DNA of 64,000 bases. Source: Streptomyces sp. YIM 121038. Lineage in GTDB: Bacteria; Actinomycetota; Actinomycetes; Streptomycetales; Streptomycetaceae. Of the stretch, positions 51,247 to 64,000 are shown piece by piece (position 1 is the stretch's first letter; each line of letters opens with the position of its first letter). The position numbers were made by a program, and so were the translations under genes. Location of the stretch: NCBI RefSeq assembly GCF_006088715.1, contig NZ_CP030771.1:2418001-2482000 (forward strand). Direction: 5' to 3'. The notes under the pieces are model-generated. The model was given only the letters and a program-made list of their open reading frames with translations. It made no database searches and was not told the DNA's origin.

Positions 51247-52290
51247 ATGCTCGAAGACCGCACGCTCGCCGCGTCCGCAGACTCCTGGCCGACCGCCTAC
51301 CCGTCGAGGTACGCGGTCGTCGACGTGGAGACCACAGGGCTGTCCAAGGACGACCGGATCATCTCCGCCGCGGTCTACCGTCTCGACGCCCGCGGCGAGG
51401 TCGAGGACCACTGGTACACGCTGGTGAACCCGCAGCGCGACCCGGGCCCGGTGTGGATCCACGGCCTGACGAGCGACCAGCTCGCCGGCGCCCCGCTCTT
51501 CGCGGACATCGCCGAGGAGTTCGGCGAGCGCCTGCGCGACCGCGTCCTCGTCGCGCACAACGCGGTCTTCGACTGGTCCATGATCGCCAGGGAGTACGCG
51601 CGCGCGGAGCGCACCGCGCCGGTCCGCCAGCGCCTGTGCACCATCGCGCTCTCCAAGGAGCTCGGCCTGCCGCTGCCCAACCACAAGCTGGAGTCGCTCG
51701 CCGCGCACTTCGGCGTGGTCCAGCGGCACGCGCACCACGCCCTGGACGACGCGCGCGTCCTCGCCGAGGCGTTCCGCCCGAGCCTGCGCGCGGCCGCGAG
51801 CGACGGCGTGCGGCTGCCGCTCCTGGAGTGCCGCCCGCTGACCGAGTGGGCCGACGGCGCGGCCCGCATCGGCCGCCAGGCCACCGGCTCCCCGGCGTCC
51901 GAGTCCGCGTACCGCGCGCAGAGTTGGCGCGCCTCCCGCAAGCGCCCCGCCTGCCCCTACCCGAACCCGGGGCGGTACGAGCCGGGCGAGCCCCTCAAGC
52001 AGGGCATGCGCGTCGCCTTCTCCGGCGACACCTCCGTGGACCGCGAGCTCCTGGAGGACCGCGCCTTCGACGCGGGCCTGCACATCGCGACGAGCGTGTC
52101 CCGGCTCACGAGCCTGCTCGTCACGAACGACCCGGACTCGGGCACGTCCAAGACGACGAAGGCGCGGTCGTTCGGCACCCCGGTCATCGACGAGGCGGCC
52201 TTCGGCCAGCTCCTCCAGGACGTGGCCCCGGCCGACGGCACGGCCGCGGGCGCCGCCCGCCGCGCTCAGCCCCCGGCGTCAGACGGGTGA
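51247..52290 (+). CDS. DEDDh 3'-5' exonuclease with C-terminal BRCT domain
   Basis: 347 aa. DnaQ-like exonuclease domain (about residues 20-185): ExoI VVDVETTGL, ExoII HNAVFDWSM, ExoIII HHALDDARV; then a linker and a BRCT-like domain (about 250-330: MRVAFSGDTSVDRELLEDRA). Resembles DNA polymerase III epsilon-like proteins of actinobacteria that are not the replicative subunit; role in DNA repair likely. ATG 51247 follows TATCCT by a few bases (leaderless). Last intact host gene before the prophage. Confidence 0.92.
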   Translation: MLEDRTLAASADSWPTAYPSRYAVVDVETTGLSKDDRIISAAVYRLDARGEVEDHWYTLVNPQRDPGPVWIHGLTSDQLAGAPLFADIAEEFGERLRDRVLVAHNAVFDWSMIAREYARAERTAPVRQRLCTIALSKELGLPLPNHKLESLAAHFGVVQRHAHHALDDARVLAEAFRPSLRAAASDGVRLPLLECRPLTEWADGAARIGRQATGSPASESAYRAQSWRASRKRPACPYPNPGRYEPGEPLKQGMRVAFSGDTSVDRELLEDRAFDAGLHIATSVSRLTSLLVTNDPDSGTSKTTKARSFGTPVIDEAAFGQLLQDVAPADGTAAGAARRAQPPASDG

Positions 52291-52354: not shown

Positions 52355-52438
52355 ATGGCACGTTGCGAGGTCTGCGGAAACGACTACGGCATGTCCTTCG
52401 AAGTCCACGCCCAGGGCGCGGTACTCCTGTTTGACTGA
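52355..52438 (+). pseudogene. 5' stump of attB gene (Cys-rich zinc/metallothionein-like protein)
   Basis: 27 codons starting at ATG 52355: MARCEVCGNDYGMSFEVHAQ, then GAVLLFD and stop. The beginning matches the conserved small protein with CEVCGNDY and later C-x2-C and H-C pairs (often annotated prokaryotic metallothionein-like). The host reading is lost after Gly-Ala, where phage sequence takes over and gives a stop. The rest of the gene is found, fused to a phage-like beginning, on the minus strand at 54037-54297. Confidence 0.85.
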
Positions 52439-52445
52439 GTTGGCT
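52412..52445 (+). other. attL region (left prophage attachment junction)
   Basis: The host gene stays in register up to GGCGCG (52415-52420) and diverges from GTACTC onward, 70-90 bp upstream of the serine integrase. attP of serine integrases usually lies directly beside int, so the crossover is placed within about 52412-52445. The two-base core cannot be fixed without attB and attR. The phage arm begins with TGTTTGACTGAGT, which recurs with one change at the integrase stop (53977-53989). Confidence 0.7.
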
Positions 52446-52511
52446 ACTCGGCCATACAGTCGCCCTCGTTCGAGCTATCGCGCATCTGTGCGCGCCAGAG
52501 AGGGGGGCCTC

Positions 52512-53987
52512 ATGCTGGCCAAGCCCGTCGGCGGCTACTGCCGCATCTCCGATGCAGACCTAGCGGACATACGCAGGGCCGTGAAAGCCGGGACGCTCAC
52601 GCCCGAGGAAGCCGCCGAGGAGGAGCGCAAGGGCGTCCTACGCCAGCGCGAGGACATCGAAGGCCTCTCCGGAGGCGTGCCGGTCAGGTGGTACGAGGAC
52701 AACAACCTAAGCGCCTTCAAGCGCAACGTGAAGCGTCCAGACTTTGAGCGGATGGTCAAGGACCTCAAGGCTGGTCGAATCTCGGGGATCCTCGCCTACG
52801 ACATCGATCGCGTGTACCGGCAGCCACGTGACCTTGAACGGGTCATCGACATCTACGAGGTCTCGAAGGAATCGCTGATCTTCAAGACGCTCTCAGGCCA
52901 GAACTTCGACCTCACCGCCTCCGACGGACGATTCTCGGCACGCCTGTTCGTGAACATCGCCAACAAGTCCTCAGAAGACACGCGGCGACGGGTAGTTCGC
53001 GCAAACGTCGCCAAGGCTAAGAAGGGGAAGTCTCACGCGTCAGGCCAGGTCTTCGGCTGGCTGGAAGACGACCCAAGCAAGCTGGACGCGCAGACTGCAT
53101 CGATTCGACGACAAGCAGTAGAGAAGTACATCGCAGGTGATCGCGTGGCCACAGTCATGAAGTGGCTCGCATCAGAGAATGTGATCAATCAGGCCACAGG
53201 AAAGCACTTCACCTGGGGCGGCACCAAGGCCATGATCCTCGCCCCCCGCAACTGGGGCATCCGCACATACAACGACGATCTGATCTATGACGATAATGGG
53301 GAGATCGTCATGGGTGACTGGGAAGCGCTGTTCCAGAACCTCGAAACCTGGCACCAGATTCAAGCCCTAAAGGGCCGTGATGCCAAGGGAACCGGCGAGT
53401 CAAACGTGAGCTACTTGCTGACCTCCATCGCGCGGTGCGGTCGATGCGGAGGAAGCCTCAAAGGGCACCCCAAGTGGGCGAAAGGCAAACGCACGTCGGG
53501 CTACAACTACAACTGTAATAAGCAGCGACCGGAGCAATGCGGGTCTCTCTCCATCAATGGCCCTCAGTTGGATGAGATGATCCAGAACTTCGTATGGGCG
53601 CAGGTAATCAAGGCCAGCAAGCAGAAGAGGACGCTGGAGCCACCCGAGCCGTGGGCCAGGGAATCCGAGCTAAAAGACGTTGAAGAACAGATGGATGAGC
53701 TTCAGGCGCTCTGGGAAGCCAAGAAGGTGCGTGCGGGCTCGTACGTGACGGCGCTCGACGACCTAAAGGCCCAGAAGAACGAGCTTTTGGCTGACCGCGC
53801 CGTCCACGTGATCCCGTCGGGGACTCGGGCTATCTCTCAAGAGCTGCTTGCCAAGGGTTGGGAAGGCCTCTCAATCGAGCGCCAACGGCTCATCGTCCGC
53901 AAGGTTCTGCGGGCCGTCATCGTGTACCCGGCAAAAAGCCGGGGTGGACGGTTCGATCCGAGTCGTGTTGAGCCCGTGTTTCACTGA
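52512..53987 (+). CDS. int: Large serine recombinase (phage integrase)
   Basis: 491 aa from ATG 52512 (AGAGAGGGGGG upstream; GTG 52488 is an in-frame alternative). Catalytic domain: VGGYCRIS with nucleophile Ser at about residue 13, and AYDIDRVYRQPRDLE with active-site Arg. Then the recombinase domain (about 165-260), a zinc ribbon (CGRCGGSLKG and CNKQRPEQCG, about 300-345) and a coiled coil (about 375-430) that controls directionality. It catalyses attP x attB integration without accessory factors. Its position next to attL confirms the prophage end. Confidence 0.96.
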   Translation: MLAKPVGGYCRISDADLADIRRAVKAGTLTPEEAAEEERKGVLRQREDIEGLSGGVPVRWYEDNNLSAFKRNVKRPDFERMVKDLKAGRISGILAYDIDRVYRQPRDLERVIDIYEVSKESLIFKTLSGQNFDLTASDGRFSARLFVNIANKSSEDTRRRVVRANVAKAKKGKSHASGQVFGWLEDDPSKLDAQTASIRRQAVEKYIAGDRVATVMKWLASENVINQATGKHFTWGGTKAMILAPRNWGIRTYNDDLIYDDNGEIVMGDWEALFQNLETWHQIQALKGRDAKGTGESNVSYLLTSIARCGRCGGSLKGHPKWAKGKRTSGYNYNCNKQRPEQCGSLSINGPQLDEMIQNFVWAQVIKASKQKRTLEPPEPWARESELKDVEEQMDELQALWEAKKVRAGSYVTALDDLKAQKNELLADRAVHVIPSGTRAISQELLAKGWEGLSIERQRLIVRKVLRAVIVYPAKSRGGRFDPSRVEPVFH

Positions 53988-54002
53988 GTGTCCTAACAGC
54001 AC

Positions 54003-54034
54003 CAACGGCCCCTGTCTCATGACAGGGGCCGTTG
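54003..54034. terminator. Bidirectional terminator between int and replacement gene
   Basis: Perfect 14-bp stem (CAACGGCCCCTGTC with its complement, loop TCAT), extended by CTAACA/TGTTAG across a small bulge. It separates the convergent int and the 54037-54297 gene, and sits exactly at a suspected recombination breakpoint. Confidence 0.88.
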
Positions 54035-54036
54035 TG

Positions 54037-54297
54037 TTAGCCGATAGAACCGCTTGCGCTCCCCACCTTGTCGACGATGCCCACCCGCCCCTCCGCGCGC
54101 GAGCAGTGCGCCCCGCAGTACCAGTGCCCGTCGGCCTCGACGCCCTGGCCGATGATGCGGCACCGGCAGTGCTCGCAGATCGGCGCCATGCGGTGGATGG
54201 CGCAGGAGAAGCAGTCGAAGACGTGGCGAGCACCATCCTTGGTCTCTACGGTGAATGACAGCTCATAATCATTCCCGCACACTTCGCAATGAGTCAT
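54037..54297 (-). CDS. Complete mosaic copy of the attB gene (Cys-rich zinc protein)
   Basis: 86 aa. Four Cys pairs (CEVC; C-x2-C in CFSC; CEHC-RC; C-x3-C in CGAHC) plus conserved His suggest two zinc sites. It is the full-length relative of the gene broken at 52355. Codons 2-23 have 11 of 22 third positions G/C, like the phage. Codons 24-80 have 57 of 57, like the host. The last six codons are mixed again. The switch after Gly-Ala matches the point where the host stump stops. It is either a phage-borne replacement or the displaced attR. It has its own promoter and convergent terminator. Confidence 0.85.
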   Translation of the reverse strand: MTHCEVCGNDYELSFTVETKDGARHVFDCFSCAIHRMAPICEHCRCRIIGQGVEADGHWYCGAHCSRAEGRVGIVDKVGSASGSIG

Positions 54298-54333
54298 ATG
54301 CGGAATCGTTAGGGGGCGGGTCACGACAGGCAA
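54298..54333 (-). promoter_or_regulatory. Promoter of the mosaic attB-gene copy
   Basis: On the minus strand TTGCCT (54328-54333), 16-nt spacer, TAACGA (54306-54311), then ATG at 54297. There is no ribosome site, so a leaderless, probably constitutive transcript. The promoter is on phage-type DNA. Confidence 0.6.
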
Positions 54334-54391
54334 GCTGCCCTCACACTCGCGCAAAGAATTCCACCCGGTCGGCGTAGCAAACCGAAGATCG

Positions 54392-54532
54392 TCACTGCTT
54401 CGGCTTCAGGTCCATTAGCTCAAGGATCTCGTCTACTTCTTCATCAGTCAGGGGCGGGGCTTGGGCCAGCCACTTAACGAGCCACTCCTCACACGACACA
54501 GCGCAACACCCCTGCGGCCGCCCCTCCGTCAC
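54392..54532 (-). CDS. Small phage protein, 46 aa
   Basis: GTG 54532 overlaps the stop of the upstream gene (GTGA), so it is coupled. Sequence begins MTEGRPQGCCAVSCEEWLVK and ends in an acidic helix (LTDEEVDEILELMDLKPKQ). No family recognised. It fills most of what would otherwise be a 230-bp gap. Confidence 0.65.
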   Translation of the reverse strand: MTEGRPQGCCAVSCEEWLVKWLAQAPPLTDEEVDEILELMDLKPKQ

Positions 54533-54744
54533 GCACCGTCGTAGCCGCGGAAAAGCACCTCCCAGAGATCGGATGCGATCTCGTCTGTGACTGCCTGGCT
54601 CAGACCGGCGCCTTTCGCCGCCCGAGCCACCTCCCCAATCAGTCCCAGACGCTTGATGGTCACCCGCTTGAAGTGCTCCAAAGCGACGTCATCCAGGCCA
54701 TCCTTAAGATCCCGCACCATCTCAGCAAATTGGTCCTCGTCCAT
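54529..54744 (-). CDS. Hypothetical phage protein, 71 aa
   Basis: Starts at ATG 54744 behind GAGGAGGGG, beginning MDEDQFAEMVRDLKDGLDDV. Entirely helical in appearance, with no Cys and a slightly acidic composition. No function assigned. It lies 8 nt after the homing endonuclease stop and overlaps the next small gene. Confidence 0.7.
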   Translation of the reverse strand: MDEDQFAEMVRDLKDGLDDVALEHFKRVTIKRLGLIGEVARAAKGAGLSQAVTDEIASDLWEVLFRGYDGA

Positions 54745-54752
54745 GCCCCTCC

Positions 54753-55283
54753 TCAGTGTTTGCTGTCTACGTGCTTCCAAGTGCGGTTCGGATTACAGGC
54801 GTCATAGATGGTCCACTTACTGACGCCATACCTTCTTGCCAGTGAGTCCACCGATTCGCCATCTGAGCGCAGAGATCGAATAGCAGCAACCTCATCGTCC
54901 GCGAGCTTTGAACCGGGGTGCGCGCTTCCACGAACCCTCGTCCCATGCGCGTCCGTGTCGGCCATGTTCTCTTGCTGTGTCGCCCACCTCAGATTCTCAA
55001 CGCGGTTGTTTGCCGGGTTTCCGTCATTGTGAGCAACTATCGGCTTCCTATCCGGGTTGGGGATGAAGGTTGAGGCAACCAACCGATGCACGAGAAACAG
55101 CCGGTTAGCCCCATCGCGTTTGATTCGAATCTGTAGGTGTCCGTGCTTCATGCGGGTTGGCTTTAGGATTCTCGGTTGCGGACGAGGCTTGAGCCCCTGC
55201 CTGGTTGGCATAACCCAACTCCTCACCTTGCCGCGCGTCGACACCTGATAGGAGCCTTCACAACCTGGCACCCATTCCCACAA
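54753..55283 (-). CDS. NUMOD4/HNH homing endonuclease
   Basis: 176 aa from TTG 55283. NUMOD4 module (residues 2-40: WEWVPGCEGSYQVSTRGKVR), HNH core (about 66-108: VHRLVASTFIPNPDRKPIVA, then HNDGNPANNRVENLRWAT with the N-x8-N-L-x-W pattern), and a C-terminal HTH of NUMOD1/resolvase type (KLADDEVAAIRSLR, VSKWTIYDA). Free-standing homing endonucleases spread by cutting phage genomes lacking them; it is inserted right behind the polymerase gene, a frequent site. Confidence 0.88.
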   Translation of the reverse strand: MWEWVPGCEGSYQVSTRGKVRSWVMPTRQGLKPRPQPRILKPTRMKHGHLQIRIKRDGANRLFLVHRLVASTFIPNPDRKPIVAHNDGNPANNRVENLRWATQQENMADTDAHGTRVRGSAHPGSKLADDEVAAIRSLRSDGESVDSLARRYGVSKWTIYDACNPNRTWKHVDSKH

Positions 55284-55291
55284 CTCGCCTA

Positions 55292-57151
55292 TCAGTGTTT
55301 AGACTCCCCCGTCTCAAGCACGGAGCCCCAGCTTCGGTCACCGATTTCTGCATCAGCCGGGATCAAGAGGCCCTTGTATGTGAACTCCATAATCCGAGCA
55401 GCCTTCTCAGCCAACCCCTCAGCACGCTCCTCCGGGAAACTGAATACGATCTCGTCATGAATCACGAGTCGCATCCAGGGAGTGAATCCAGCTTCGTGGA
55501 GCTTGATGACTGCTCGGGCCATGATGTCGCGACAGCTTGATTGGATCCGGTAATTCATGGCTGCGTATGGCCGCTTAGGGTCCGTGAGGATCCGTCGACC
55601 GGTGACGGTGTAGATGAAGCCGTCCTTACGCGCCTCCTGCGTGCACTGGTCTGAGAGTCGCCTCGTAGCCGGATAGGTCGCCCAGAATCCACGTACGGCC
55701 TTCTTGGCGTCTCCCTCGCCGATATCCCATTGCTCGCTTACGGCCCGCCAGCCACCCCCAAAGCACACCGTGTAGTTGGTGCCCTTACCGGCTTTGCGCT
55801 TCGGGTGGTGCGTCTCGCCCTCCGGTATCGGTCCGAATGCCGCCGCGGCCGTGATGTCGTGCAGATCCTCGCCTTGCTTGTAGGCCTGCAACATCCGTCG
55901 ATCGCCGGAGTCTGCGGCGAGGAACATCAACTCCATGGAGGCGTAATCGACGGTGACCGTCACATGCCCCTCTTCCGCAAGAAAGGAATGACGCACGTAG
56001 CCCGTCCCCGCAGGAAGCGTCTGAGCGGCTATCGCCCCCGTAACCGTCATCCGCGCCGATCTGGCTTGGCACGAATTGATGGTTACGTGTACCCGACCAT
56101 TCTTGTCCCGGCCTTTTAGAGCAGCCTCAAACCACGTCGTCCGCTTCTTATGCGCGGCCTTCGCCTTGATGATTGCCTCGGAGAGCGGGTGATCGATCCC
56201 CTTCAGAACCGAGTCATCCATAGACCATTGGCCTTCGGGGTGGTTCTTACTCGGCTTCGTACGCTTGGTCAGCTTGAAGCCCAGGCCGGTGAAGGCCTCG
56301 ACGAGCTGAGGCGTAGACCCAATGCTGTCGACACCATACTGAGCCGCGACAGCCTTCCAATCAGCCTCCTCCTTGGTCAGCTCATCGATTCGTTGCCGGG
56401 TGTACTCCTCATCGACGAGGTAGCCAGTCCGCTCCATCTGGTACGTGACCCAGTGAAGTCGGTGCTCCCATCCGATAAGGCCTTGCCGTCTCGAACGAGC
56501 CGGAATCTTCGGGAGCAGGATGTTCAGCAGCCGGAAGGCGAATACCGGATCCATGCCTGCGTAGAGCGAAAACTCATCATCGAACAACTCGACAACGGAC
56601 CAGATTTCCGTCTTCTTGACCTTGTACCGGCGAGCGATCTCGGTCATGGACTTCTTGACCTTCTCGCCCGTCTCCGCACAGATGTAGTGCGGTACAAGCT
56701 CTTCGAGCTTGAGCCCAGGTCCACCTTCTTTGCGGGCACGGGAATCGACGAGATGGGCGAGGGTCTTCGTGCAGAAAGTCTTGCGTACGAGCACTTCCGC
56801 GGAGATTCCGAAACAGGACTCCAATACGTGGATGTCGAAGCCGCGGTTGTGGGCTGCTAGCCGCTCCGCCTTGTGCACGGCCCAGGTGACAGCATCGACG
56901 TACGGAGCCCCCAACTCGACGGGTATGACCCACGCTTCGTCGGCGTTGCCGAACTGGACGAGGCGGCAGCGGAAGCCGTCTCCGGCGTTCCACCAGTCGA
57001 GCCCTGTCGTCTCGGTGTCGAAGCCCATCACGGGGTTACTGCTGACGAACTCGTAGAAACCGGCGAGGTCTTGCTCAGTCTGGACGACGTTGATGCGGAT
57101 ACGCTGCCGCTTGAGGGTGTAGGTGATGACCTTCAGATAGCCCCCTCTCAT
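55292..57151 (-). CDS. Phage DNA polymerase, family A with 3'-5' exonuclease
   Basis: 619 aa. Exonuclease domain: ExoI VMGFDTETTGLDWW (about residue 42), ExoII AHNRGFDIHVL, ExoIII YAGMDPVFAFRLL. Polymerase: motif A VTVDYASMELMFLAADSGD, O-helix region KRKAGKGTNYTVCFGGG, motif C MRLVIHDEIVFSFPEE. No 5'-3' exonuclease domain, so T7/phiC31-type replicative polymerase. ATG 57151 is used; a start some codons in is possible because GAGAGGGGG sits inside. Replicates the phage with the primase and helicase-like genes upstream. Confidence 0.94.
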   Translation of the reverse strand: MRGGYLKVITYTLKRQRIRINVVQTEQDLAGFYEFVSSNPVMGFDTETTGLDWWNAGDGFRCRLVQFGNADEAWVIPVELGAPYVDAVTWAVHKAERLAAHNRGFDIHVLESCFGISAEVLVRKTFCTKTLAHLVDSRARKEGGPGLKLEELVPHYICAETGEKVKKSMTEIARRYKVKKTEIWSVVELFDDEFSLYAGMDPVFAFRLLNILLPKIPARSRRQGLIGWEHRLHWVTYQMERTGYLVDEEYTRQRIDELTKEEADWKAVAAQYGVDSIGSTPQLVEAFTGLGFKLTKRTKPSKNHPEGQWSMDDSVLKGIDHPLSEAIIKAKAAHKKRTTWFEAALKGRDKNGRVHVTINSCQARSARMTVTGAIAAQTLPAGTGYVRHSFLAEEGHVTVTVDYASMELMFLAADSGDRRMLQAYKQGEDLHDITAAAAFGPIPEGETHHPKRKAGKGTNYTVCFGGGWRAVSEQWDIGEGDAKKAVRGFWATYPATRRLSDQCTQEARKDGFIYTVTGRRILTDPKRPYAAMNYRIQSSCRDIMARAVIKLHEAGFTPWMRLVIHDEIVFSFPEERAEGLAEKAARIMEFTYKGLLIPADAEIGDRSWGSVLETGESKH

Positions 57152-57157
57152 GAGAAA

Positions 57158-57180
57158 GGGGGCCGAGAATCCCGGCCCCC
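57158..57180 (-). terminator. Hairpin upstream of the phage polymerase gene
   Basis: Minus strand GGGGGCCG (57173-57180) pairs with CGGCCCCC (57158-57165), then TTTCTC: a terminator or attenuator within the otherwise overlapping phage gene train, just before the polymerase start. Confidence 0.6.
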
Positions 57181-57200
57181 CACCTCAATCAACAATCAAG

Positions 57201-57749
57201 CTACTTGACCCACTGAATGAAGTCGCATCCGGCCGGGTCTCGATAATCAGCAACCTTCTTGGCGCACTTGTAGGCGCGGTTCGGCTGGCCGGGGTTGTAT
57301 CGGGACTGTCCCCACTCTGTGTAGGCCGATGGCGCACCGCACTTGCACGGCGGCCCTGGAGGCGCGCTCTGGGCCTGGGGAGCCGCCACAACGCGGCCGT
57401 TCTCGAACGTCTTGGGTGTGACTGCGGCCGGGGCCGCTCCGCCAGCGGCGTGTGTCTCTCGCATCTTGGTCGCCGCCGCGGACACCGCCTGAATCACCTG
57501 GTACTCCGCGAGGGCCTTCACCAACTCGACCACGCTCCGGGCTGCCTCAGCAGCGGTCCAGCCGTACACACGAGGCGTGAGCCATTCGGCCTCGAACCCT
57601 GCGGCGGCCTTGAGGGTGATGCCGATTTCGAATGGGCGCTGCGCCGAGGTCTCCGTAGGCGAGGCTGGGGCGTCTCCGGCCTCCTTCGGCTTGGCGTTGT
57701 CGGTCTCGCCCCACGGGGAGGGGCCATCGAACGGGCTCTGATACGTCAA
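57201..57749 (-). CDS. Phage protein with C-terminal zinc-finger-like region (possible ssDNA-binding protein)
   Basis: 182 aa from TTG 57749 (AAGGAG upstream). N-terminal Pro/Ala/Glu-rich linker, a central region RPFEIGITLKAAAGFEAEWL to about residue 95, another Ala/Pro linker, then a Cys cluster (CKCGAPSAYTEWG, YKCAK, GCDFIQW) resembling a GRF-type finger. Located between the sigma-like and polymerase genes, it probably binds DNA in replication. Specific role unproven. Confidence 0.7.
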   Translation of the reverse strand: MTYQSPFDGPSPWGETDNAKPKEAGDAPASPTETSAQRPFEIGITLKAAAGFEAEWLTPRVYGWTAAEAARSVVELVKALAEYQVIQAVSAAATKMRETHAAGGAAPAAVTPKTFENGRVVAAPQAQSAPPGPPCKCGAPSAYTEWGQSRYNPGQPNRAYKCAKKVADYRDPAGCDFIQWVK

Positions 57750-57761
57750 ACTGGTCTCCTT

Positions 57762-58307
57762 CTATCGACTACGTATGTCTCGGTTCATTTGTCGGGCCAA
57801 TGCGTCAACCGCCCTATTCGCCGCCCTGCGCTCCGAGTCGTCTGCCGGAGGCAGACCGTAGACGTAGCGGCGCATCAGTACTTCTCGCGTGGCCTTGGGG
57901 AGCTTGTTGATGGCGTTGGTGGCGTCCATGCGGGCGCTCACCACGTTGTCAGTGATCCGGCACTTCAGCAGGTCATCCTTCTTGCCCAGGGATGCGGACA
58001 GTTCGGAATCGGTGTAGACGAAGGTTTCCAGAATCGCGCGAGCCTCAGGCGGCGTGTAGTAGTACCGGTCATCCTCAACATCCCGTGCGTCTCGCACCTT
58101 TGAGGCGTACTGCTTAGCGGCTGTGCGCGAGAACTTCCAGAGGAATTCCTCCGTATAGTTCTCCTCAATCAAAGGACGACGCTCATACGCATGCAACAGA
58201 ATCTCTTGCTTCACGTCGTCTTTCTCAACGATGGGCCAGGAGGCGGCTGTTGAGCGGGCTACCTTGTCAGCGATCGAGGCTACCCATGCCCAGTCGATGA
58301 CGATCAC
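57762..58307 (-). CDS. Sigma-like/HTH phage protein
   Basis: 181 aa from GTG 58307, overlapping the stop of the metallophosphoesterase gene (GTGA). DDVKQEILLHAYERRPLIEE resembles sigma region 2, and the C-terminal INKLPKATREVLMRRYVYGL resembles sigma region 4. Sigma-like but divergent; it may direct transcription of late genes or be a DNA-binding relic. Confidence in the family is moderate. Confidence 0.6.
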   Translation of the reverse strand: MIVIDWAWVASIADKVARSTAASWPIVEKDDVKQEILLHAYERRPLIEENYTEEFLWKFSRTAAKQYASKVRDARDVEDDRYYYTPPEARAILETFVYTDSELSASLGKKDDLLKCRITDNVVSARMDATNAINKLPKATREVLMRRYVYGLPPADDSERRAANRAVDALARQMNRDIRSR

Positions 58308-59119
58308 CGGCCGCTCCTGCTGACGAATCGGCCATTAGCAGCTCGGGCAACGCGGCCGTACGACTCGCCCTCGACGATGAACGAGCCGTCGGCCGCGATG
58401 TCGATGCACTGCGGGGCGACCTGAACGTCATCGACGTACAGGATTCCGAAGCCCGTTTGCCAGTTGGCGACGCCACCAGGGCCTAGGTATGAGGCCTTGG
58501 AGGGCGCCATGAGGTGGCCGACCTCCATCCCCCAGCGGACAGTTCGCTTGCCGCCCTCGTAGCCCGTCCCGGCCCGCACGACGCCGAGCCGATGTGTGTG
58601 CCCCATGATCACGTTGACCCCGGCCTTGAGTGCGTGCCGTAGAGCTGTGCGACCTGCCTCCTGGCTGAGGCCCTTCACCTCGTGGCCGTGCAGGAGCACG
58701 GTGTCAGGGCCCACCTGATGGAAGGGCGGCACGAGGCTCACGCTGAAGCCGTCGAAATCCAAGAGCTTGGCAAAGTGGAAGTCGATGGCGTACTCCGCCA
58801 GTGCCGGGGCCTTCGAGGAGAGGTAGACCCGCGGTCTCAGGTCGTGATTGCCCTCCAGGATCCCGAACGGGCCGTCGTAGACGCTCCTGATGGGGTCGAG
58901 GAATACCCGCTTCGTCGCCTCGGAGTCGGCCTTTACGCGCTGTTCGTACTCTCGGCGTGTGCCCTCACTCCACCTCGACGGCGTGGGGTAATCGCAGAGG
59001 TCACCGATCTGGTACAGCTCGTCAGGCTGGTAACTGCCAATGAACTCAACTACGTTCTTCAGATACCGTGGATCGTGATACGGAATCTGAGTGTCGCTGA
59101 TGACTACGATTCGCTTCAA
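58304..59119 (-). CDS. Phage metallophosphoesterase
   Basis: 271 aa from TTG 59119 (GGGGAGG upstream), overlapping the preceding stop (TTGA). Calcineurin-type motifs in order: ISDTQIPYHD, IGDLCDY, LEGNHDLRPR, LLHGHEVKG, MGHTHRLG. Dinuclear metal phosphatase acting on DNA, nucleotides or RNA ends. Such enzymes are common in actinophage replication modules. A longer start at 59158 is possible but lacks a ribosome site. Confidence 0.9.
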   Translation of the reverse strand: MKRIVVISDTQIPYHDPRYLKNVVEFIGSYQPDELYQIGDLCDYPTPSRWSEGTRREYEQRVKADSEATKRVFLDPIRSVYDGPFGILEGNHDLRPRVYLSSKAPALAEYAIDFHFAKLLDFDGFSVSLVPPFHQVGPDTVLLHGHEVKGLSQEAGRTALRHALKAGVNVIMGHTHRLGVVRAGTGYEGGKRTVRWGMEVGHLMAPSKASYLGPGGVANWQTGFGILYVDDVQVAPQCIDIAADGSFIVEGESYGRVARAANGRFVSRSGR

Positions 59120-59484
59120 GCATCCTCCCCTGTGGTTTGCCGATAGGCCTCTCCCCATGACACGCCGTCATCCTGAAGACCCTGAACGCTGACGAACGTA
59201 TTGGTAGCGGAAATCGAAATATCATCGAAGAATTGGAGTAGCGGCACGGCTGCACCCTCACCCTCATATCGCGCGATATCTTCCAGAGAGATCCCAAGCC
59301 GATGAAGGACGGCGCCCACCAGACATCCCGGCTCGCTCGGGTCGCCGTCTTCAGTCGAGTGCACGTAGAAGCAGGAATACGTTTCGCCACCCGGCATGTG
59401 CTCCGGCTTGGCGTAGATCCGATCCGGGGACTCCTTCACCACACTGCGCAGCGCCTCAAGAAGTCGCTCATCTGTTTCGCTCAA
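59116..59484 (-). CDS. Hypothetical phage protein, 122 aa
   Basis: Begins at TTG 59484, overlapping the primase stop (TTGA). Acidic; two Cys (in YSCFYVH and PGCLVG). The C-terminal FVSVQGLQDDGVSWGEAYRQ has a conserved look. No family recognised. It is coupled to both neighbours, so part of the replication transcript. Confidence 0.7.
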   Translation of the reverse strand: MSETDERLLEALRSVVKESPDRIYAKPEHMPGGETYSCFYVHSTEDGDPSEPGCLVGAVLHRLGISLEDIARYEGEGAAVPLLQFFDDISISATNTFVSVQGLQDDGVSWGEAYRQTTGEDA

Positions 59485-60149
59485 TGGCCGATCCTTTCCA
59501 ACAGGGCCGCTCGGCCCGATTTGAGGAATGTCGCGTTACTATCCAGATCTCCCGGCATGGTGATGACCCGGGAATTCGGGAGGTCGGCAGCGATGCTGTC
59601 CATGAACGTCAGGCCGGGGCCGTCCTCGGCGATGAGGTAGACGGTGCGGTAGCCGCGGAGCGGCCCTGTCCAGTAGGCCGCCCATGTCCCGGTGCCGGGC
59701 GCTGCCACTGCGGGCACGCCCACCAGGGCCCACGTCATGGCGTCCAGCTCGCCCTCAACGACGACCATCGTGGGCGTCGGCTCGATCAAGGCCTGCGTGT
59801 TGAACAGCCGCGGTAGGTCGCCCGGCAGCGTCAGGTACTTGCCGTGGCCCTGGTGCTGCTCCTTCTCGGCCTGGAGGACCAGGAGGCCGCCGTCAGGGGC
59901 TCGTACGCACTCATCGGCGATACAGCGGTACCGGACGGTCGCAACCCCGTCTTCGCCCCCTGCGGGCCTCAGGTACGGGATGGCGAGGTATCCCCGGTAC
60001 CGCTCATGACCAGGTATCGCCGAACCGACGTAGCCGAGGCCGAACTGGTCGGCTGCCTCTCCGAGCCCCCTCGCCTTGATGTATTCCTCTGCCGGGCTCC
60101 CCCGGTACTGCTCGTGATACGTCCGGGCTGCCAAATCCGAGCCCGGCAC
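59481..60149 (-). CDS. Phage DNA primase, Toprim part
   Basis: 222 aa counted from GTG 60149. DnaG-like RNA polymerase core: GYLAIPYLRPAGGEDGVATV then RYRC, and Toprim TMVVVEGELDAMTWALVGVP with the catalytic Glu. The zinc-binding part is in another frame upstream, overlapping by 146 nt. Its start is unclear: GTG 60149 has no ribosome site, but GGGAGGAGGGGG lies about 30-40 nt upstream inside the CHC2 gene, with an in-frame CTG following; a +1 frameshift is the other reading. Confidence 0.85.
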   Translation of the reverse strand: MPGSDLAARTYHEQYRGSPAEEYIKARGLGEAADQFGLGYVGSAIPGHERYRGYLAIPYLRPAGGEDGVATVRYRCIADECVRAPDGGLLVLQAEKEQHQGHGKYLTLPGDLPRLFNTQALIEPTPTMVVVEGELDAMTWALVGVPAVAAPGTGTWAAYWTGPLRGYRTVYLIAEDGPGLTFMDSIAADLPNSRVITMPGDLDSNATFLKSGRAALLERIGH

Positions 60150-60405
60150 GTGCGCGTTCTTGGGCGTCAGCGAAACGAACCCCCTCCTCCCGCATGATTA
60201 CGTCGTAGCTGTCTTCGCTGAGGTTGCAGGCAAAGCAATTCCAGCGATTCTTATCGAGGTCGACAGACGCAGATGGATTCGAGTCCAGATGTGACGGGAG
60301 GGGGCAAGCAATTTTCACCCGCCCCCTCGTTGCCGTCAGCGTGAGCCCGTAGTAGTGGGCTAGGACTCTAGCGATCGGTGGTTTTGATGACCTGTCGTCT
60401 GCCAT
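60004..60405 (-). CDS. Phage DNA primase, CHC2 zinc-binding part
   Basis: 133 aa from ATG 60405. CHC2 zinc finger: IACPLPSH and CFACNLSEDS (C-x3-H and C-x2-C, the DnaG N-terminal ribbon), with the helix DSYDVIMREEGVRFADAQER. After that the frame turns into Arg/Gly/Pro-rich sequence that looks non-coding, exactly where the Toprim frame begins, so the functional part ends near residue 85. The two pieces together make one primase. Confidence 0.8.
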   Translation of the reverse strand: MADDRSSKPPIARVLAHYYGLTLTATRGRVKIACPLPSHLDSNPSASVDLDKNRWNCFACNLSEDSYDVIMREEGVRFADAQERARAGLGFGSPDVSRAVPGEPGRGIHQGEGARRGSRPVRPRLRRFGDTWS

Positions 60406-60529
60406 CAGGCCCGACCTTGTATGTCGTCACCGGGAAGTCGTACTTGCGGTACGAGTTGATCCAGGTGGCGCGGTCACCACGCCAACGCCTCGTGTGGGAT
60501 CCCCTACTCATCTGTTCGTCGCTGGCCAT
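60368..60529 (-). CDS. Small basic phage protein, 53 aa
   Basis: ATG 60529 overlaps the upstream stop (TAATG), and its 3' end overlaps the CHC2 gene start. Sequence runs MASDEQMSRGSHTRRWRGDR to RQVIKTTDR; rich in Arg and Lys. It fits the overlapping style of the operon. No family recognised; possibly nucleic-acid-binding. Confidence 0.65.
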   Translation of the reverse strand: MASDEQMSRGSHTRRWRGDRATWINSYRKYDFPVTTYKVGPDGRRQVIKTTDR

Positions 60530-60807
60530 TAGAAGGACATTCCCGTGACAAACTTCCGCGCCTCAGAGAATCGAAGGGTGCCCGTGAGGAGATGGGTCGG
60601 GTCCCCTTCCTGCGGGTAAAACGAGGGAACTACTTCGTCCAGAGTCTTACGGATCGCGTCAACGTGCTTTCGAGGGCTGCGCTGCACCGATCCGCCCACT
60701 CGGCCCAGAACTGCGCGCAGAACCGCCACCTCTTCCATGGTGAGCGTCAGAGCTACGCCCTCGACTTCCTCAAGCTTCATCACAGTCGTACGCTTAGCGT
60801 CAGCCAT
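60529..60807 (-). CDS. Hypothetical phage protein, 92 aa
   Basis: ATG 60807 lies 8 nt inside the upstream endonuclease VII gene. Begins MADAKRTTVMKLEEVEGVAL; the central LTMEEVAVLRAVLGRVGGS looks like an amphipathic helix pair. No recognised domain. Confidence 0.7.
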   Translation of the reverse strand: MADAKRTTVMKLEEVEGVALTLTMEEVAVLRAVLGRVGGSVQRSPRKHVDAIRKTLDEVVPSFYPQEGDPTHLLTGTLRFSEARKFVTGMSF

Positions 60808-61234
60808 TTGATTCTCCTTCAGGCGTGTATCTCGGCTCGCCCAGGGCTTCCCAGGCGGGATATTGCTCTAGGTAGTCCGCTGCTCGACGCAGAACATCGG
60901 CACGGTCCCGCGCTCCGCGAGCTAGGAGAGTCCCATTGCAGCGGGCACAAAGGAGGCCTCGCACTGCATTCGTCTTGTGGCAGTGATCGACGGCGAGATT
61001 GGTTCGCCGAGTCTCCCGGCAGATAGCGCAGCGGCCACCTTGGAACTTCAGGATCTGCTCGTAGTCGTCAGCAGACAGACCGTAGGTCTTTCGGACTCGC
61101 GCATTGCGGGCAGATGATCGCCGACTCGCCTTTCGGCAATTGAGGCAGACTCGGCCCCGCGGAGTGTAGAACCGCTCCGCTCGGTTCTTACCGCACTTGG
61201 TGCACTTTCGGTATCCCTTACGGGCAGGGGCCAC
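60800..61234 (-). CDS. Recombination endonuclease VII-like HNH nuclease
   Basis: 144 aa from GTG 61234, sharing a base with the TAG of the gene before. N-terminal zinc knuckle CTKCGKNRAERFYTPRGRVC with a further C-x2-C; then the Endo VII domain: YGLSADDYEQILKFQGGRCA, ICRETRRTNLAVDHCHKTNA with the catalytic DH-x-H, and RGLLCARCNGTL. Resolves branched DNA (Holliday junctions, mismatches) before packaging. Confidence 0.9.
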   Translation of the reverse strand: MAPARKGYRKCTKCGKNRAERFYTPRGRVCLNCRKASRRSSARNARVRKTYGLSADDYEQILKFQGGRCAICRETRRTNLAVDHCHKTNAVRGLLCARCNGTLLARGARDRADVLRRAADYLEQYPAWEALGEPRYTPEGESNG

Positions 61235-61572
61235 TAGGCCGCCAGCCGGACGCGGTACTCAGCCTGGAGCTGGGCCCGCTCCTCCTGGCTCGCGTCCACA
61301 TGCATCCACAGGGCGAAGACGGGAAGAGCAACCGGCTCGCATCCTGGCCGCACGACTACAGCCGTCTTGACGCCTCCGCTGGCAGCCCCGATGAGCAATC
61401 GTCCGAGCTTCCACACATTCAGCTTGCGGGGGTCTCCGACTCGGACAACGAGGGCCAACCCGCTCGTGTCCACGTCTGACAGGTCGATGCCCGGAAACCG
61501 GGATTCCAAGTGAAAACCAAACTCCCGCTCGACTACAAATCCCCCACTGACCATGCTTCGCATCTGCGTCAT
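61234..61572 (-). CDS. Hypothetical phage protein, 112 aa
   Basis: ATG 61572 follows AGGGAGGGG. Begins MTQMRSMVSGGFVVEREFGF and contains beta-rich stretches (GLALVVRVGDPRKLNVWKLG, VKTAVVVRPGC). No domain recognised. It stands between the RecA/DnaB-like ATPase and the endonuclease VII gene, so a replication accessory role is plausible but unproven. Confidence 0.7.
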   Translation of the reverse strand: MTQMRSMVSGGFVVEREFGFHLESRFPGIDLSDVDTSGLALVVRVGDPRKLNVWKLGRLLIGAASGGVKTAVVVRPGCEPVALPVFALWMHVDASQEERAQLQAEYRVRLAA

Positions 61573-61595
61573 GCCGCCCCTCCCTGGGCTGTCCT

Positions 61596-62429
61596 TCAGC
61601 TGATCGAATCGAACTCGAAACCGCCGTCTAGCTCCTCCAGGCGCAAATTGCTGCTGTTGAGCCGGAAGCTTGCAAATGTCCTGCCGCTCGGATCTGCGAA
61701 GCCCTCACGATTCTTCACTGGAGAGATGTTCAGAATCCGCCCTCCAACCCCGTCATCCTCCTTGTGCATTGTCAAGATGAGAGATGGAACCCGTGAGACT
61801 TTCCCTTTCACTCCACTTAGCGGGATCGGGCTCGTGCCGTCAGAATGTTCCCCCGTGGTGTGGTGCATCCCTAGCACATGTGCATTCGTCGATCGAGCCA
61901 TATCCGACAGGTACTCGCAAAGCGCTTCCAGCCCGAATGTGTAACTCTCAGCGTCTCGCACATTGCCGTAGTCAACATTCGTAACGTTGTCGACGCATAT
62001 CAAGTGGGCTGAGGTACCCAGTACCTCCAGGTAGCCGAGAAGGTCAAGCTCCATGGATTTTGGTGTCGGCTGTGCGTCGTAATTCATACGGATCCACCAC
62101 CGCTTTCCCAACTTCCCCTCGAAGAGCGAGTTGCGCCCAGCGGCCAGCGCGGCCTTAATCTCCCTCACGTCCGCCCCGGTGATGATGGCCGCGGCCCTGG
62201 AAATCTGCGTTGCTGCGCTGGAGTCGGCCGAGAAGTACAGGACTGGCATACCGCCCCGCATCGCCAGGTTCGCGGCCAGCAGCGACTTACCTGTACCAGG
62301 CCCCGCCACCACGAGCGAGAATTCGCCCCGCCGAAACTCGACCTCCAAGCGACTCAACGACTTGAACGGGTGCGGGATCGGCTCGCCCCCGGCCCCCTTG
62401 ATGTCTGCCGACTGGAACAGTGTGAACAC
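61596..62429 (-). CDS. RecA/DnaB-fold ATPase (probable replicative helicase or recombinase)
   Basis: 277 aa from GTG 62429. AAA_25/RecA-like core: Walker A VVAGPGTGKSLLAANLA (about residue 40), Walker B HLICVDN, and a sensor-like VLGMHHTTGE. No N-terminal DnaB primase-binding domain, so either a short phage helicase or a RecA-like loader. Located two genes from the polymerase accessory set and next to the RecB-like nuclease. Confidence 0.85.
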   Translation of the reverse strand: MFTLFQSADIKGAGGEPIPHPFKSLSRLEVEFRRGEFSLVVAGPGTGKSLLAANLAMRGGMPVLYFSADSSAATQISRAAAIITGADVREIKAALAAGRNSLFEGKLGKRWWIRMNYDAQPTPKSMELDLLGYLEVLGTSAHLICVDNVTNVDYGNVRDAESYTFGLEALCEYLSDMARSTNAHVLGMHHTTGEHSDGTSPIPLSGVKGKVSRVPSLILTMHKEDDGVGGRILNISPVKNREGFADPSGRTFASFRLNSSNLRLEELDGGFEFDSIS

Positions 62430-62463
62430 TACTCACCCCCGTCTTCGAAACACAAGTTTTTGG

Positions 62464-62489
62464 ATAAAAAAATAGGCCCCTCAGGGCTC
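62464..62489 (-). terminator. Possible terminator with seven-T run
   Basis: Minus strand GCCC/GGGC short stem followed by TATTTTTTTATCC. The 7-nt T run is exceptional for this genome. Located between the RecB-like nuclease and the ATPase gene. The stem is only 4-5 bp, so the call is weak. The AT-rich stretch could also be a promoter. Confidence 0.4.
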
Positions 62490-62510
62490 GCTTAGATCGA
62501 AATACACCGC

Positions 62511-63302
62511 TCACCGTCTCGCATAGTTGCATGCATGTGATACATCACAGAACCTGCAATGAAAGCCGGGCCGCGCCGGGAACTCCCCCGCCTTTATCCC
62601 TCGATCCAACTCAGCGTAGGCGCTCCCAACCGCCTCCTCTGTCGCATGTGACAGGTCGACCCTCCGGGACAGTCTCCCCGTCTTGGCCATATACCAATCC
62701 CCACCGTTGGTTTCTACCCCCAGAGCCTTTCTGACCAAGACAGCATATGTTTCTAGCTGAAACTTCGAGCGAGAGCTACCCGTCTTTAGATCCCGAATTC
62801 TCGCTGAACCGTCGGCCTCCACAATGAGCTGATCAATAATCCCCCTAACCTTCACGCCACAGATTTCATGTGCCAAATCCAGCTCAACGCCAGGCGCCCC
62901 ATCGGCCCCCTGCCATATCCGAGGCCCCTGCCCCCGAGACCACTGGACATAGCTTTCCGTCTGCTTCAGGCCAAGACGATATCGGTTTTCGATATCTGCA
63001 CCACCAGGGGGGCCAGCAGTCATCCACCGATCTAGGTTGGGTTCCTTATTCAAAGCCGATTTCGTGAGTCTGGAGTACTCGCGCCCAAAGACCTCTTGCA
63101 CCTCGCGAGCTGATGATTTACGCCCACCCAGCTCGAAGGCCTCGATAGCAGAATGGAACGCGCTTCCTTGATGGGACCAGGCCGCCGGTCGGGGTTCAAC
63201 TCGAACCACTCGCCGAAGACGGTACTGCTCCGGGCATTTCAGGTACTGCTCTGCCTGACTCGGAGACCTCGGAATGTCGAATACATCTGCATGGCCTGTC
63301 AT
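62511..63302 (-). CDS. PD-(D/E)XK nuclease, RecB/Cas4-like, with possible Fe-S cluster
   Basis: 263 aa from ATG 63302 (GGAGGGG upstream). Motifs: GSAFHSAIEAFE (motif I His), VRGIIDQLIV (Asp), ARIRDLKTG (D/ExK) and QLETYAVL (QxxxY). The first Cys in LKCPEQYRLRR and three more in FHCRFCDVSHACNY match the four-Cys [4Fe-4S] clamp of AddB/Cas4 nucleases. Likely processes phage DNA ends. No cas genes nearby. Confidence 0.9.
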   Translation of the reverse strand: MTGHADVFDIPRSPSQAEQYLKCPEQYRLRRVVRVEPRPAAWSHQGSAFHSAIEAFELGGRKSSAREVQEVFGREYSRLTKSALNKEPNLDRWMTAGPPGGADIENRYRLGLKQTESYVQWSRGQGPRIWQGADGAPGVELDLAHEICGVKVRGIIDQLIVEADGSARIRDLKTGSSRSKFQLETYAVLVRKALGVETNGGDWYMAKTGRLSRRVDLSHATEEAVGSAYAELDRGIKAGEFPARPGFHCRFCDVSHACNYARR

Positions 63303-63322
63303 ACCCCTCCGTGTGATCTTTA

Positions 63323-63655
63323 TCAGCAAACTGATGCCACCGTATACACAGTGAATGACTTAGAGCGCAACAGCCCGGGGTGAGGTCGTTCGAATGTGGC
63401 AGCGTGAACAATCCTATTCCGCCATGGTCTACCGGTGCCTCCGCCGGTGATCGCCTGAGCCGCCCCTTCATCTTCGTGCGGCATGCCGTCGCCTGCCACC
63501 AACATGTAATAGACGCCCCCCTGTCGAGTTGTCACCTGATTTACGAGCAGTGCGTCAGAGGCATACACCTCACACACTTCTGCGACCCCCGCGGACCGAA
63601 CCTCAGCCAGCCCGGCACCTGACTTCGGCGCACTTCTGCCCCCGCCCCTAGCCAT
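63323..63655 (-). CDS. Hypothetical phage protein, 110 aa
   Basis: ATG 63655 (MARGGGRSAPKSG). Central QVTTRQGGVYYMLVAGDGMP looks folded; the C-terminus has HPGLLRSKSFTVYTVASVC. Function unknown. The N-terminal Gly/Ser region may be non-coding if a later start is used. It precedes the nuclease gene by 20 bp. Confidence 0.6.
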   Translation of the reverse strand: MARGGGRSAPKSGAGLAEVRSAGVAEVCEVYASDALLVNQVTTRQGGVYYMLVAGDGMPHEDEGAAQAITGGGTGRPWRNRIVHAATFERPHPGLLRSKSFTVYTVASVC

Positions 63656-63730
63656 CCCCACACCCACGTTCGCTCACCGCCGCGCGTTCGCGCGCTCCAG
63701 CAAATCAAGGCCCCCATCTCGCTGCCTGAA

Positions 63731-63761
63731 CTGCCCGGAGATCCGATGGTTCTCCGGGCAG
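63731..63761 (-). terminator. Terminator after small exported protein gene
   Basis: CTGCCCGGAGA (63731-63741) and TCTCCGGGCAG (63751-63761) form a perfect 11-bp stem just past the stop at 63768. It insulates the replication gene train from the upstream gene. Confidence 0.75.
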
Positions 63762-63767
63762 GGATCT

Positions 63768-63977
63768 CTAGATGTTGATGTCGCCCATGGCGCTCCGCGC
63801 GCCTAGCTCCGTAGCCCCAGAGTCCGCCGTGGACGACTCGGACGTTTGCGCCGACCCGCCTCCCCCTGCGGAGTCTTCAGCCATCAGAACGGCCGGAGCC
63901 GCAGCCAAGGCCGTAACGGCGGCCGCAACCGCGAACGCCAGTCCGATCGTCTTCCGTATCGCTTGAGCGTTGATCAT
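63768..63977 (-). CDS. Small exported or membrane-anchored phage protein
   Basis: 69 aa from ATG 63977 (GAGGGAGAG upstream). N-terminal MINAQAIRKTIGLAFAVAAA with a hydrophobic helix to about residue 32 (TALAAAPAVLMA), an Ala-type cleavage-like end, then a Ser/Gly/Thr-rich tail. Might be a lysogeny-conversion or superinfection-exclusion protein (inference only). First gene at the right edge; it has its own terminator. Confidence 0.7.
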   Translation of the reverse strand: MINAQAIRKTIGLAFAVAAAVTALAAAPAVLMAEDSAGGGGSAQTSESSTADSGATELGARSAMGDINI

Positions 63978-64000
63978 TTCGTCTCTCCCTCTAGTGGTGA

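What the first reader, a model, noticed from the sequence alone, without database searches (positions are those of the whole stretch)
52355..54297. Phage-associated mosaic rebuilds the very gene it breaks
Seen: the host Cys-rich gene stops at attL after Gly-Ala (codon 22). 1.6 kb away on the opposite strand is a complete 86-codon version. Its codons 2-23 have 50% G/C third positions (11 of 22); the next 57 codons have 100%; the last six codons are mixed again. The switch is at the same protein position as the host break. Inference: either the phage carries a replacement gene whose attB left half is recoded so its own integrase cannot cut it, with a captured host 3' half, or this is attR itself, moved next to attL by one inversion of the remaining prophage. 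In both cases function is rescued from a phage promoter, which argues that the small zinc protein matters to the host or the phage.
Basis: partly seen in the sequence, partly recalled or inferred. Interest (0 to 1): 0.9.

Follow-up and report, generated by a model that had tools for sequence, protein, structure and literature searches.

The report
Phage carries spare of broken gene
A virus that splits a small zinc-protein gene when it inserts into a Streptomyces chromosome brings its own complete spare of that gene, and part of that spare has since been overwritten by the stranded half of the host's broken gene, which looks like a built-in repair of the damage the virus does.

Summary
The window holds the left part of an apparently intact 54.6-kb prophage. 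Its right end, 52.8 kb from the copy, holds the host gene's own 3' half on the plus strand, followed by SURF1. Joining the flanks gives an ordinary 77-aa gene, full-length in 50 of 60 other Streptomyces sampled. The phage carries a full 86-codon version downstream of its serine integrase. Copies in Streptomyces violens and genome G347 share its 5' type and extra codon but differ in the 3' half. In the window the 162-bp 3' block is identical to this host's stranded half; the nearest other host block differs at 15 sites. In G347, an independent remnant, the copy also matches its own host best (83-bp perfect run; next of 48 blocks, 41). So the mosaic is best read as gene conversion of a pre-existing phage gene by the stranded host half. 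Copies look purified by selection and survive in two decayed prophages. New: repeated host-to-phage tailoring of a whole-gene replacement. Known kind: elements that restore the gene they enter. Expression and function are untested.

The parts
51247..52290 (+). host flanking gene, exonuclease of the DNA polymerase III epsilon kind (name from recall); left neighbour of the attB gene
   Evidence: ORF (listed from 51199); neighbour also in G086, G045, G347
52355..52424 (+). 5' part (codons 1-23) of the split host zinc-protein gene
   Evidence: uninterrupted relatives
52415..52424 (+). attL core GGCGCGGTAC; the shared GT is the inferred crossover dinucleotide
   Evidence: attR variants with GTAC and GTGC
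52512..53987 (+). large serine integrase, 491 aa
   Evidence: Pfam Resolvase, Recombinase and Zn_ribbon_recom above cut-off; 54% identical to the Ibantik integrase
53993..54040 (.). strong inverted repeat between the convergent integrase and copy (inner hairpin 54003-54034), likely two-way terminator
   Evidence: fold z-score -6.2, 0 of 200 shuffles as stable; the terminator scan's two hits in the region equal the chance mean of 2.0
54037..54297 (-). phage-borne replacement gene, 86 codons plus stop
54226..54297 (-). phage-type 5' block of the copy (codons 1-24, with extra Asp21 and Arg24)
   Evidence: nearest to the S. violens copy (0.264 differences per site), then to two solitary subtype genes (0.278, 0.306), then to standard host genes (0.333 and more); 15 of 72 differences to the G347 copy
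54064..54225 (-). 162-bp host-type block, identical to the host 3' half at attR (G000:C1:2525014-2525175)
54040..54063 (-). phage-type C-terminal tail GSASGSIG, similar in the S. violens copy and begun in the G347 copy (GSAV), absent from the host gene
52425..64000 (.). left part of the 54.6-kb prophage, which runs on to G000:C1:2525013 outside the window
   Evidence: polymerase, primase, helicase, exonuclease, endonuclease VII here; terminase, portal, tape measure, endolysin further on

Best explanation
A temperate Streptomyces phage of the Ibantik kind integrates by a serine integrase into codon 23 of a conserved small zinc-protein gene and cuts it in two. It carries a complete, diverged version of that gene just downstream of its integrase, convergent with it. 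That version lacks the crossover dinucleotide (CGC where most hosts have GTN), so it should not be a target for the phage's own integrase. In the lysogen the phage copy is the only whole gene (shown) and probably supplies the function (inferred). Its 3' half faces the stranded, homologous host 3' half at attR, 52.8 kb away and inverted. Homologous gene conversion from that half has overwritten the whole 162-bp shared block here, and about 100 bp of it in an independent remnant, G347 (pattern shown; mechanism inferred). The stranded half cannot donate sequence left of the cut, and homology ends at the stop codon, which explains both ends of the host-like block in the window.
For: Second host 3' half at attR on the plus strand; joined flanks give the standard gene, full-length at 71% identity or more in 50 of 60 other Streptomyces. 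S. violens: integrase with an internal deletion plus the copy stand where the host gene should be, and the copy is the only match in that genome. G347: the copy is the only whole match; both host halves remain; no integrase found. Conversion: 0 of 162 differences to own host, next block 15; G347 copy 2 of 102 in the tract to own host, next best 9; longest perfect run 83 against 41 for the next of 48 blocks. Both flanks of the block are phage-type. Direction: all 57 codons 24-80 end in G or C, close to the host genes' mean of 94% in this block; the window copy's CSRAEG occurs in this host, in the host-type proteins P0012 and P0112, and in none of the six other aligned phage-type copies. Purifying selection: pN/pS 0.07-0.14 in four comparisons of short alignments.
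Against: No expression data; the one sigma-70-like promoter hit in the region is not on the copy's strand. Two genomes with a fossil attR (G045, G321) kept no copy, and five of 61 genomes had no match to the family at E 1e-10, so the function is not always needed. The G347 tract does not start at the cut, so the coincidence of block edge and att site in the window may be partly chance. Only two copy/host pairs could be tested; S. violens has no host half left. RCRIIG, which the window copy shares with its host, also occurs in P0009, a DGAR-type protein without the tail, so that motif alone does not give the direction. No phage record or viral contig with a close relative of the gene was found. 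No Rad52-like recombinase was recognised in the 29 prophage proteins scanned.
Confidence: 0.78

Rival explanations
1. Capture before integration: the phage copy took up the host 3' block from an intact host gene in an earlier infection of the same or a very close strain, and then integrated.
For: A 162-bp identity is equally recent under this reading; the 3' block is the better-matched half (host against the S. violens copy: 80%, and 68% for the 5' half; host against the window copy's 5' half: 62%), so a breakpoint near the cut needs no att site. Prophage genes include an exonuclease and endonuclease VII, and recombination of diverged phage DNA is reported (title and start of abstract of PMC3945230).
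Against: It needs an earlier infection of the same lineage, whereas the stranded half is permanently present. In G347 the copy also matches the half in its own genome best.
Confidence: 0.15
2. attR itself was moved next to attL by an inversion of the prophage.
For: The copy's 3' half is host sequence in inverted orientation.
Against: A host-type 3' half is still at the right end, preceded by right-end sequence like that at the attR of G045, G321 and G347 (compared by eye), and followed by SURF1. The copy has a phage-type tail beyond the host block. Gene order agrees with Ibantik.
Confidence: 0.01
3. The copy is ordinary phage cargo with its own use for the phage, and its kinship with the attB gene is a coincidence.
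For: Zinc proteins of this kind also occur elsewhere in genomes; function is unknown.
Against: The gene inserted into and the gene carried are the same family; the copy outlives most of the prophage in two lineages. Phages with integrases at 40-56% identity, whose attB is unknown, had no relative of it in 20 loci examined, nor in 11 loci, some of them the same.
Confidence: 0.12
4. Assembly or polishing artefact copied one 162-bp block onto the other.
For: Perfect identity of two blocks.
Against: If the blocks once differed as much as host and S. violens copy do (33 of 162), reads would hardly cross-map; the contig is 10.13 Mb long; G347 shows a partial version of the same thing.
Confidence: 0.02

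Closest known systems
Prophage e14 in icd of Escherichia coli
   Same: Integration cuts a conserved coding gene and the element makes up the loss; a duplicated piece of the gene remains at the other end (passages read in PMC6379469).
   Different: e14 supplies only the missing 3' end, through the attachment junction itself. Here a whole separate gene is carried 1.6 kb from the junction on the other strand, and the cut gene stays broken.
SXT in prfC and IMEVchUSA3 in dusA
   Same: Element restores the gene it enters; [quoted passage not shown]
   Different: They rebuild the gene at attR with a new 5' end; here attR stays a headless 3' half.
Streptomyces phage Ibantik
   Same: Closest annotated phage integrase (54%); HNH gene and DNA polymerase I follow on the opposite strand in the same order, and small genes beside the integrase look alike by eye.
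   Different: No zinc-protein gene downstream of its integrase.
Prokaryotic metallothionein (PF02069)
   Same: Weak match of the C-terminal Cys cluster; some database names use it.
   Different: Score 19.9 against a cut-off of 33; the model resembles small zinc fingers of LIM and L24e kind, with weak matches only, none at E below 0.001.

Membership tests
Integrative element that restores the gene it enters | attB lies inside a host coding gene that integration cuts | tested here: met
Integrative element that restores the gene it enters | element supplies coding sequence that yields a full-length product | tested here: met
   86-codon ORF with the cysteines that are invariant in a 42-sequence family alignment of which it is the first row
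Integrative element that restores the gene it enters | restoration occurs through the attachment junction (gene whole across attL or attR) | tested here: not met
   neither junction gives a whole host gene; the whole gene is elsewhere in the prophage
Integrative element that restores the gene it enters | product is expressed and functional in the lysogen | not testable with these tools
   only indirect: low pN/pS and retention in remnants
Large serine integrase | resolvase, recombinase and zinc beta-ribbon domains | tested here: met
   all three above cut-off
Gene conversion | internal block of one copy identical to the donor, flanks not | tested here: met
Gene conversion | exchange took place between the two copies within this lysogen | tested here: inconclusive
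   own-host match best in 2 of 2 testable pairs; capture from an intact gene not excluded
Prokaryotic metallothionein PF02069 | score above the curated cut-off | tested here: not met
   19.9 bits against 33; host protein 18.4

The most novel reading that the evidence does not exclude
This phage lineage keeps a self-adjusting replacement gene: the half of the host gene that integration strands at attR serves as a standing template, so that in each lysogen the phage copy is converted towards that host's own allele. The rescue gene becomes tailored to its host, can take over for good when the prophage decays, and, if the phage is induced, carries host sequence to the next host. As a by-product the identical inverted blocks could flip the 52.8-kb prophage interior and lock it by destroying attR.
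Probability: 0.3. Interest if true: 0.75.

Novelty: new variant of a known kind. Interest (0 to 1): 0.6.

Why it matters
Phages that settle in coding genes must pay for the damage. The known payers I found in print mend the gene at the junction. Here the payment is a whole second gene that the integrase should not be able to cut, and that outlives most of the phage in at least two lineages. The stranded host half then seems to act as donor to it. This gives natural replicates (other lysogens of the same integrase group) for measuring how fast a prophage gene is homogenised with host DNA, and it points to a conserved but uncharacterised zinc protein whose loss matters enough to be insured against.

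Tried and rejected
Inversion: rejected by the right end. Older conversion in the S. violens copy: its 5' half is much further from hosts than its 3' half (0.363 against 0.178), which first looked like a trace, but the solitary subtype genes L013 and L022 show the same imbalance (0.331/0.168 and 0.310/0.182), so dropped. Search for free phages with the gene: none in phage records; in three viral-contig scans, none, and one 37% partial match (L106), not a close relative. More lysogens: the integrase search of 394 genomes of the family gave 19 others, all at 34-43% identity; the attR pattern in 384 genomes of the family gave only this genome. Of the nine 2-mismatch hits, two genomes (G026, G222) were checked and have a full-length gene on another contig; the other seven were not checked. 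Known fold: no PDB match with E below 0.001. Literature: ten searches; no listed title or start of abstract described a phage carrying a whole replacement of the gene it cuts, but the listings were capped and subscription papers are mostly not held, so this is weak evidence of absence. Papers: passages read of PMC2791158, PMC6814406, PMC8409611 and PMC6379469; PMC3945230 seen as listing and start of abstract only.

Errors of mine, corrected: one search used the exonuclease in a wrong frame (redone). Searches aligned host-type genes with the extra codon without a gap (redone; the window and S. violens copies were gapped correctly). The difference counts printed at the end are void because a search string was not found (redone). 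The 48 blocks are the distinct 3' blocks that passed a filter on length and first codon; they may include some paralogues, and genes that did not pass were dropped.

Full report
What is there. The window lies at bases 2418001-2482000 of contig C1 of an 11.1-Mb genome. The genus is Streptomyces by inference: the S. violens record NZ_JOBH01000018 (L010) has the same contig number and coordinates as genome G086, which the tool lists as same genus. An exonuclease gene is followed at 52355 by the first 23 codons of a small Cys-rich gene, then by phage DNA starting with a serine integrase (52512-53987). The right end of the prophage is at C1:2525013. There the remaining codons of the Cys-rich gene stand on the plus strand, followed by a SURF1-type gene (name recalled from its sequence). 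The prophage is 54.6 kb long and looks intact: polymerase, primase, helicase, exonuclease, endonuclease VII, large terminase, portal, scaffold, adaptor, tape measure, tail and endolysin. Of 29 proteins scanned, eight had no match. Its closest annotated phage relative by integrase is Ibantik, 54%, which also has an HNH gene and polymerase I in that order on the opposite strand.

The empty site. Joining the flanks gives a 77-aa protein, MARCEVCGNDYGMSFEVHAQGAVHVFDCFSC...GIVDKV. A family match at E up to 1e-10 was found in 56 of 61 Streptomyces genomes, this one included. Of the 60 others, 50 have a full-length match at 71% identity or more, three only a 55-58% match, one a match cut by masked sequence, one a split gene (G045) and five none. 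SURF1 lies within the fetched stretch in 39 of 49 loci, some of them short or duplicates. The crossover is placed in the GT of the Val23 codon: attR reads AGAGTACACG here but AGAGTGCACG in G045 and G347, so the base right of GT is host-derived. At this codon the host-type genes and paralogues compared have GTN in 42 of 48.

The copy. On the minus strand at 54297-54037, convergent with the integrase across a strong hairpin, lies an 86-codon gene. It differs from the host gene by an extra codon (Asp21), Arg instead of Val at the crossover codon, and an eight-residue tail. Six other proteins aligned with it share the ETxDGARHVFD signature: the copies of S. violens and G347, and database clusters P0002, P0003, P0005 and P0008. 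The KVGS tail is present in five of the six. Further listed proteins with this or a like signature (P0004, P0006, P0007, P0009, P0013-P0015) were read but not aligned; some lack the tail, so not every such protein need be phage-borne. Cluster P0003 and integrase cluster P0126 are both listed with a longest contig of 6818 bases, which suggests, but does not prove, the same contig.

The mosaic. Codons 25-78 of the copy (162 bp) are identical to the host half at attR. Among 48 distinct 3' blocks the next closest differs at 15 sites. The S. violens copy differs from this host at 33 of 162 sites. To the left, the window copy is nearest to the S. violens copy (0.264); then come two solitary subtype genes, L013 (0.278) and L022 (0.306), and then standard host genes; from its own host it differs at 26 of 69 sites. 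To the right, it has the phage-type tail. The motif CSRAEG of the window copy occurs in the host, in P0012 (an uninterrupted host-type protein named Streptomyces sp. LHD-70) and in the stranded half P0112, but in none of the six other copies. RCRIIG is shared with host and P0012 too, but also with P0009, a DGAR-type protein, so it is not diagnostic. Together these show a replacement of an internal block, most simply from host to phage.

A second case. A pattern search for the attR junction in 392 genomes gave 13 with a match at up to 2 mismatches; three were exact (window genome, G045, G347), one had one mismatch (G321), and nine had two. G347 has both host halves, the exonuclease and SURF1 neighbours, and a phage-type copy 0.4 kb from attR; no integrase was found in the 18 kb and 11 kb read. 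Its copy is converted in part: positions 18-120 of the block differ from its own host at 2 of 102 sites, against 9 or more for every other block; the longest perfect run is 83 bp against 41. Outside that tract it is not closest to its own host (13 differences; best other 8). The tract was chosen after seeing the alignment, so the fair statement is rank: own host first of 48 in each of two genomes. The direction in G347 is not independently shown.

Is the copy used? S. violens has the copy and an integrase lacking 38 internal residues between the exonuclease and SURF1, and no other match to the family. G347's copy is its only whole match. Between copies, pN/pS is 0.07 (window/G347, 5' half), 0.12 (window/G086, 5' half), 0.12 (G347/G086, codons 1-78) and 0.14 (G347/G086, 5' half); the alignments are short and synonymous sites near saturation. 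So the gene is kept while the phage around it decays. Against a strict need: G045 and G321 carry a fossil attR and no copy; each has a protein of the same family, 48-56% identical to phage-type copies, elsewhere. Such a second match occurred in 5 of the 59 other genomes, so the pair of coincidences has p of about 0.007, but this was noticed after the fact.

How it probably works. Integration leaves a headless host 3' half at attR and a complete phage gene near attL, in inverted orientation. The phage gene lacks the crossover dinucleotide in all three copies read at DNA level (CGC), so it should be spared by the integrase. In the lysogen it is the only whole gene. Recombination between the two homologous blocks then copies host sequence into the phage gene. 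What is shown: the arrangement, the identity, the phage-type flanks, the own-host match in two genomes, low pN/pS and retention. What is inferred: expression, rescue of function, conversion within the lysogen rather than capture from an intact gene, and immunity to the integrase.

The protein. It is below the cut-off of the prokaryotic metallothionein family (19.9 against 33 bits) and has no NCBIfam match. The predicted model (mean pLDDT 84.5, tail below 50) looks like two small zinc-finger halves; matches to LIM and L24e structures are weak by E-value. The integration cut falls inside the first half. Function remains unknown.

How common. Integrases at 71-81% identity form 23 clusters (P0122-P0144; only the 7999 candidates sharing most words were scored), those with an organism name all from Streptomyces. 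In genome samples a close integrase was found in this genome and S. violens only: 2 of 295 and 2 of 392. Among 394 genomes of the family, 19 others match, at 34-43% identity. Phages with integrases at 40-56% identity (Ibantik and viral contigs) have no relative of the gene in the 20 loci, several of which are short.

Noticed in passing
L142-L146 (IMG/VR contigs), just downstream of the integrase: In the slot where the window phage has its zinc-protein copy, these relatives (integrase about 55%) carry a convergent 234-237 aa ORF with 94-95% G/C third positions; the one tested (L144) is a ThyX-type thymidylate synthase. It might be another attB replacement or plain nucleotide metabolism.
   Followed up: partly
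L092-L094 and L042 (G045:C3:1591-49540): The same host gene is split with about 48 kb between the halves and a fossil phage right end at attR, but no integrase or copy by tblastn; ORFs read near the right end look like sugar-metabolism and LacI-type genes by eye rather than phage genes.
   Followed up: partly
L013 (G060) and L022 (G051): Solitary genes of a subtype with the extra codon and Arg at the crossover codon, with no exonuclease or SURF1 in the fetched stretch; nearest relatives of the phage copy's 5' half after the S. violens copy, and perhaps its origin.
   Followed up: partly
L127 (G321:C1:4833980-4834144): Fossil attR with an unpaired host 3' half; no phage-type copy in that genome.
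   Followed up: partly
window 54753-55283 (-): HNH endonuclease with NUMOD4 and helix-turn-helix regions next to the polymerase I gene; Ibantik has an HNH gene at the same place.
   Followed up: no
   Followed up: no
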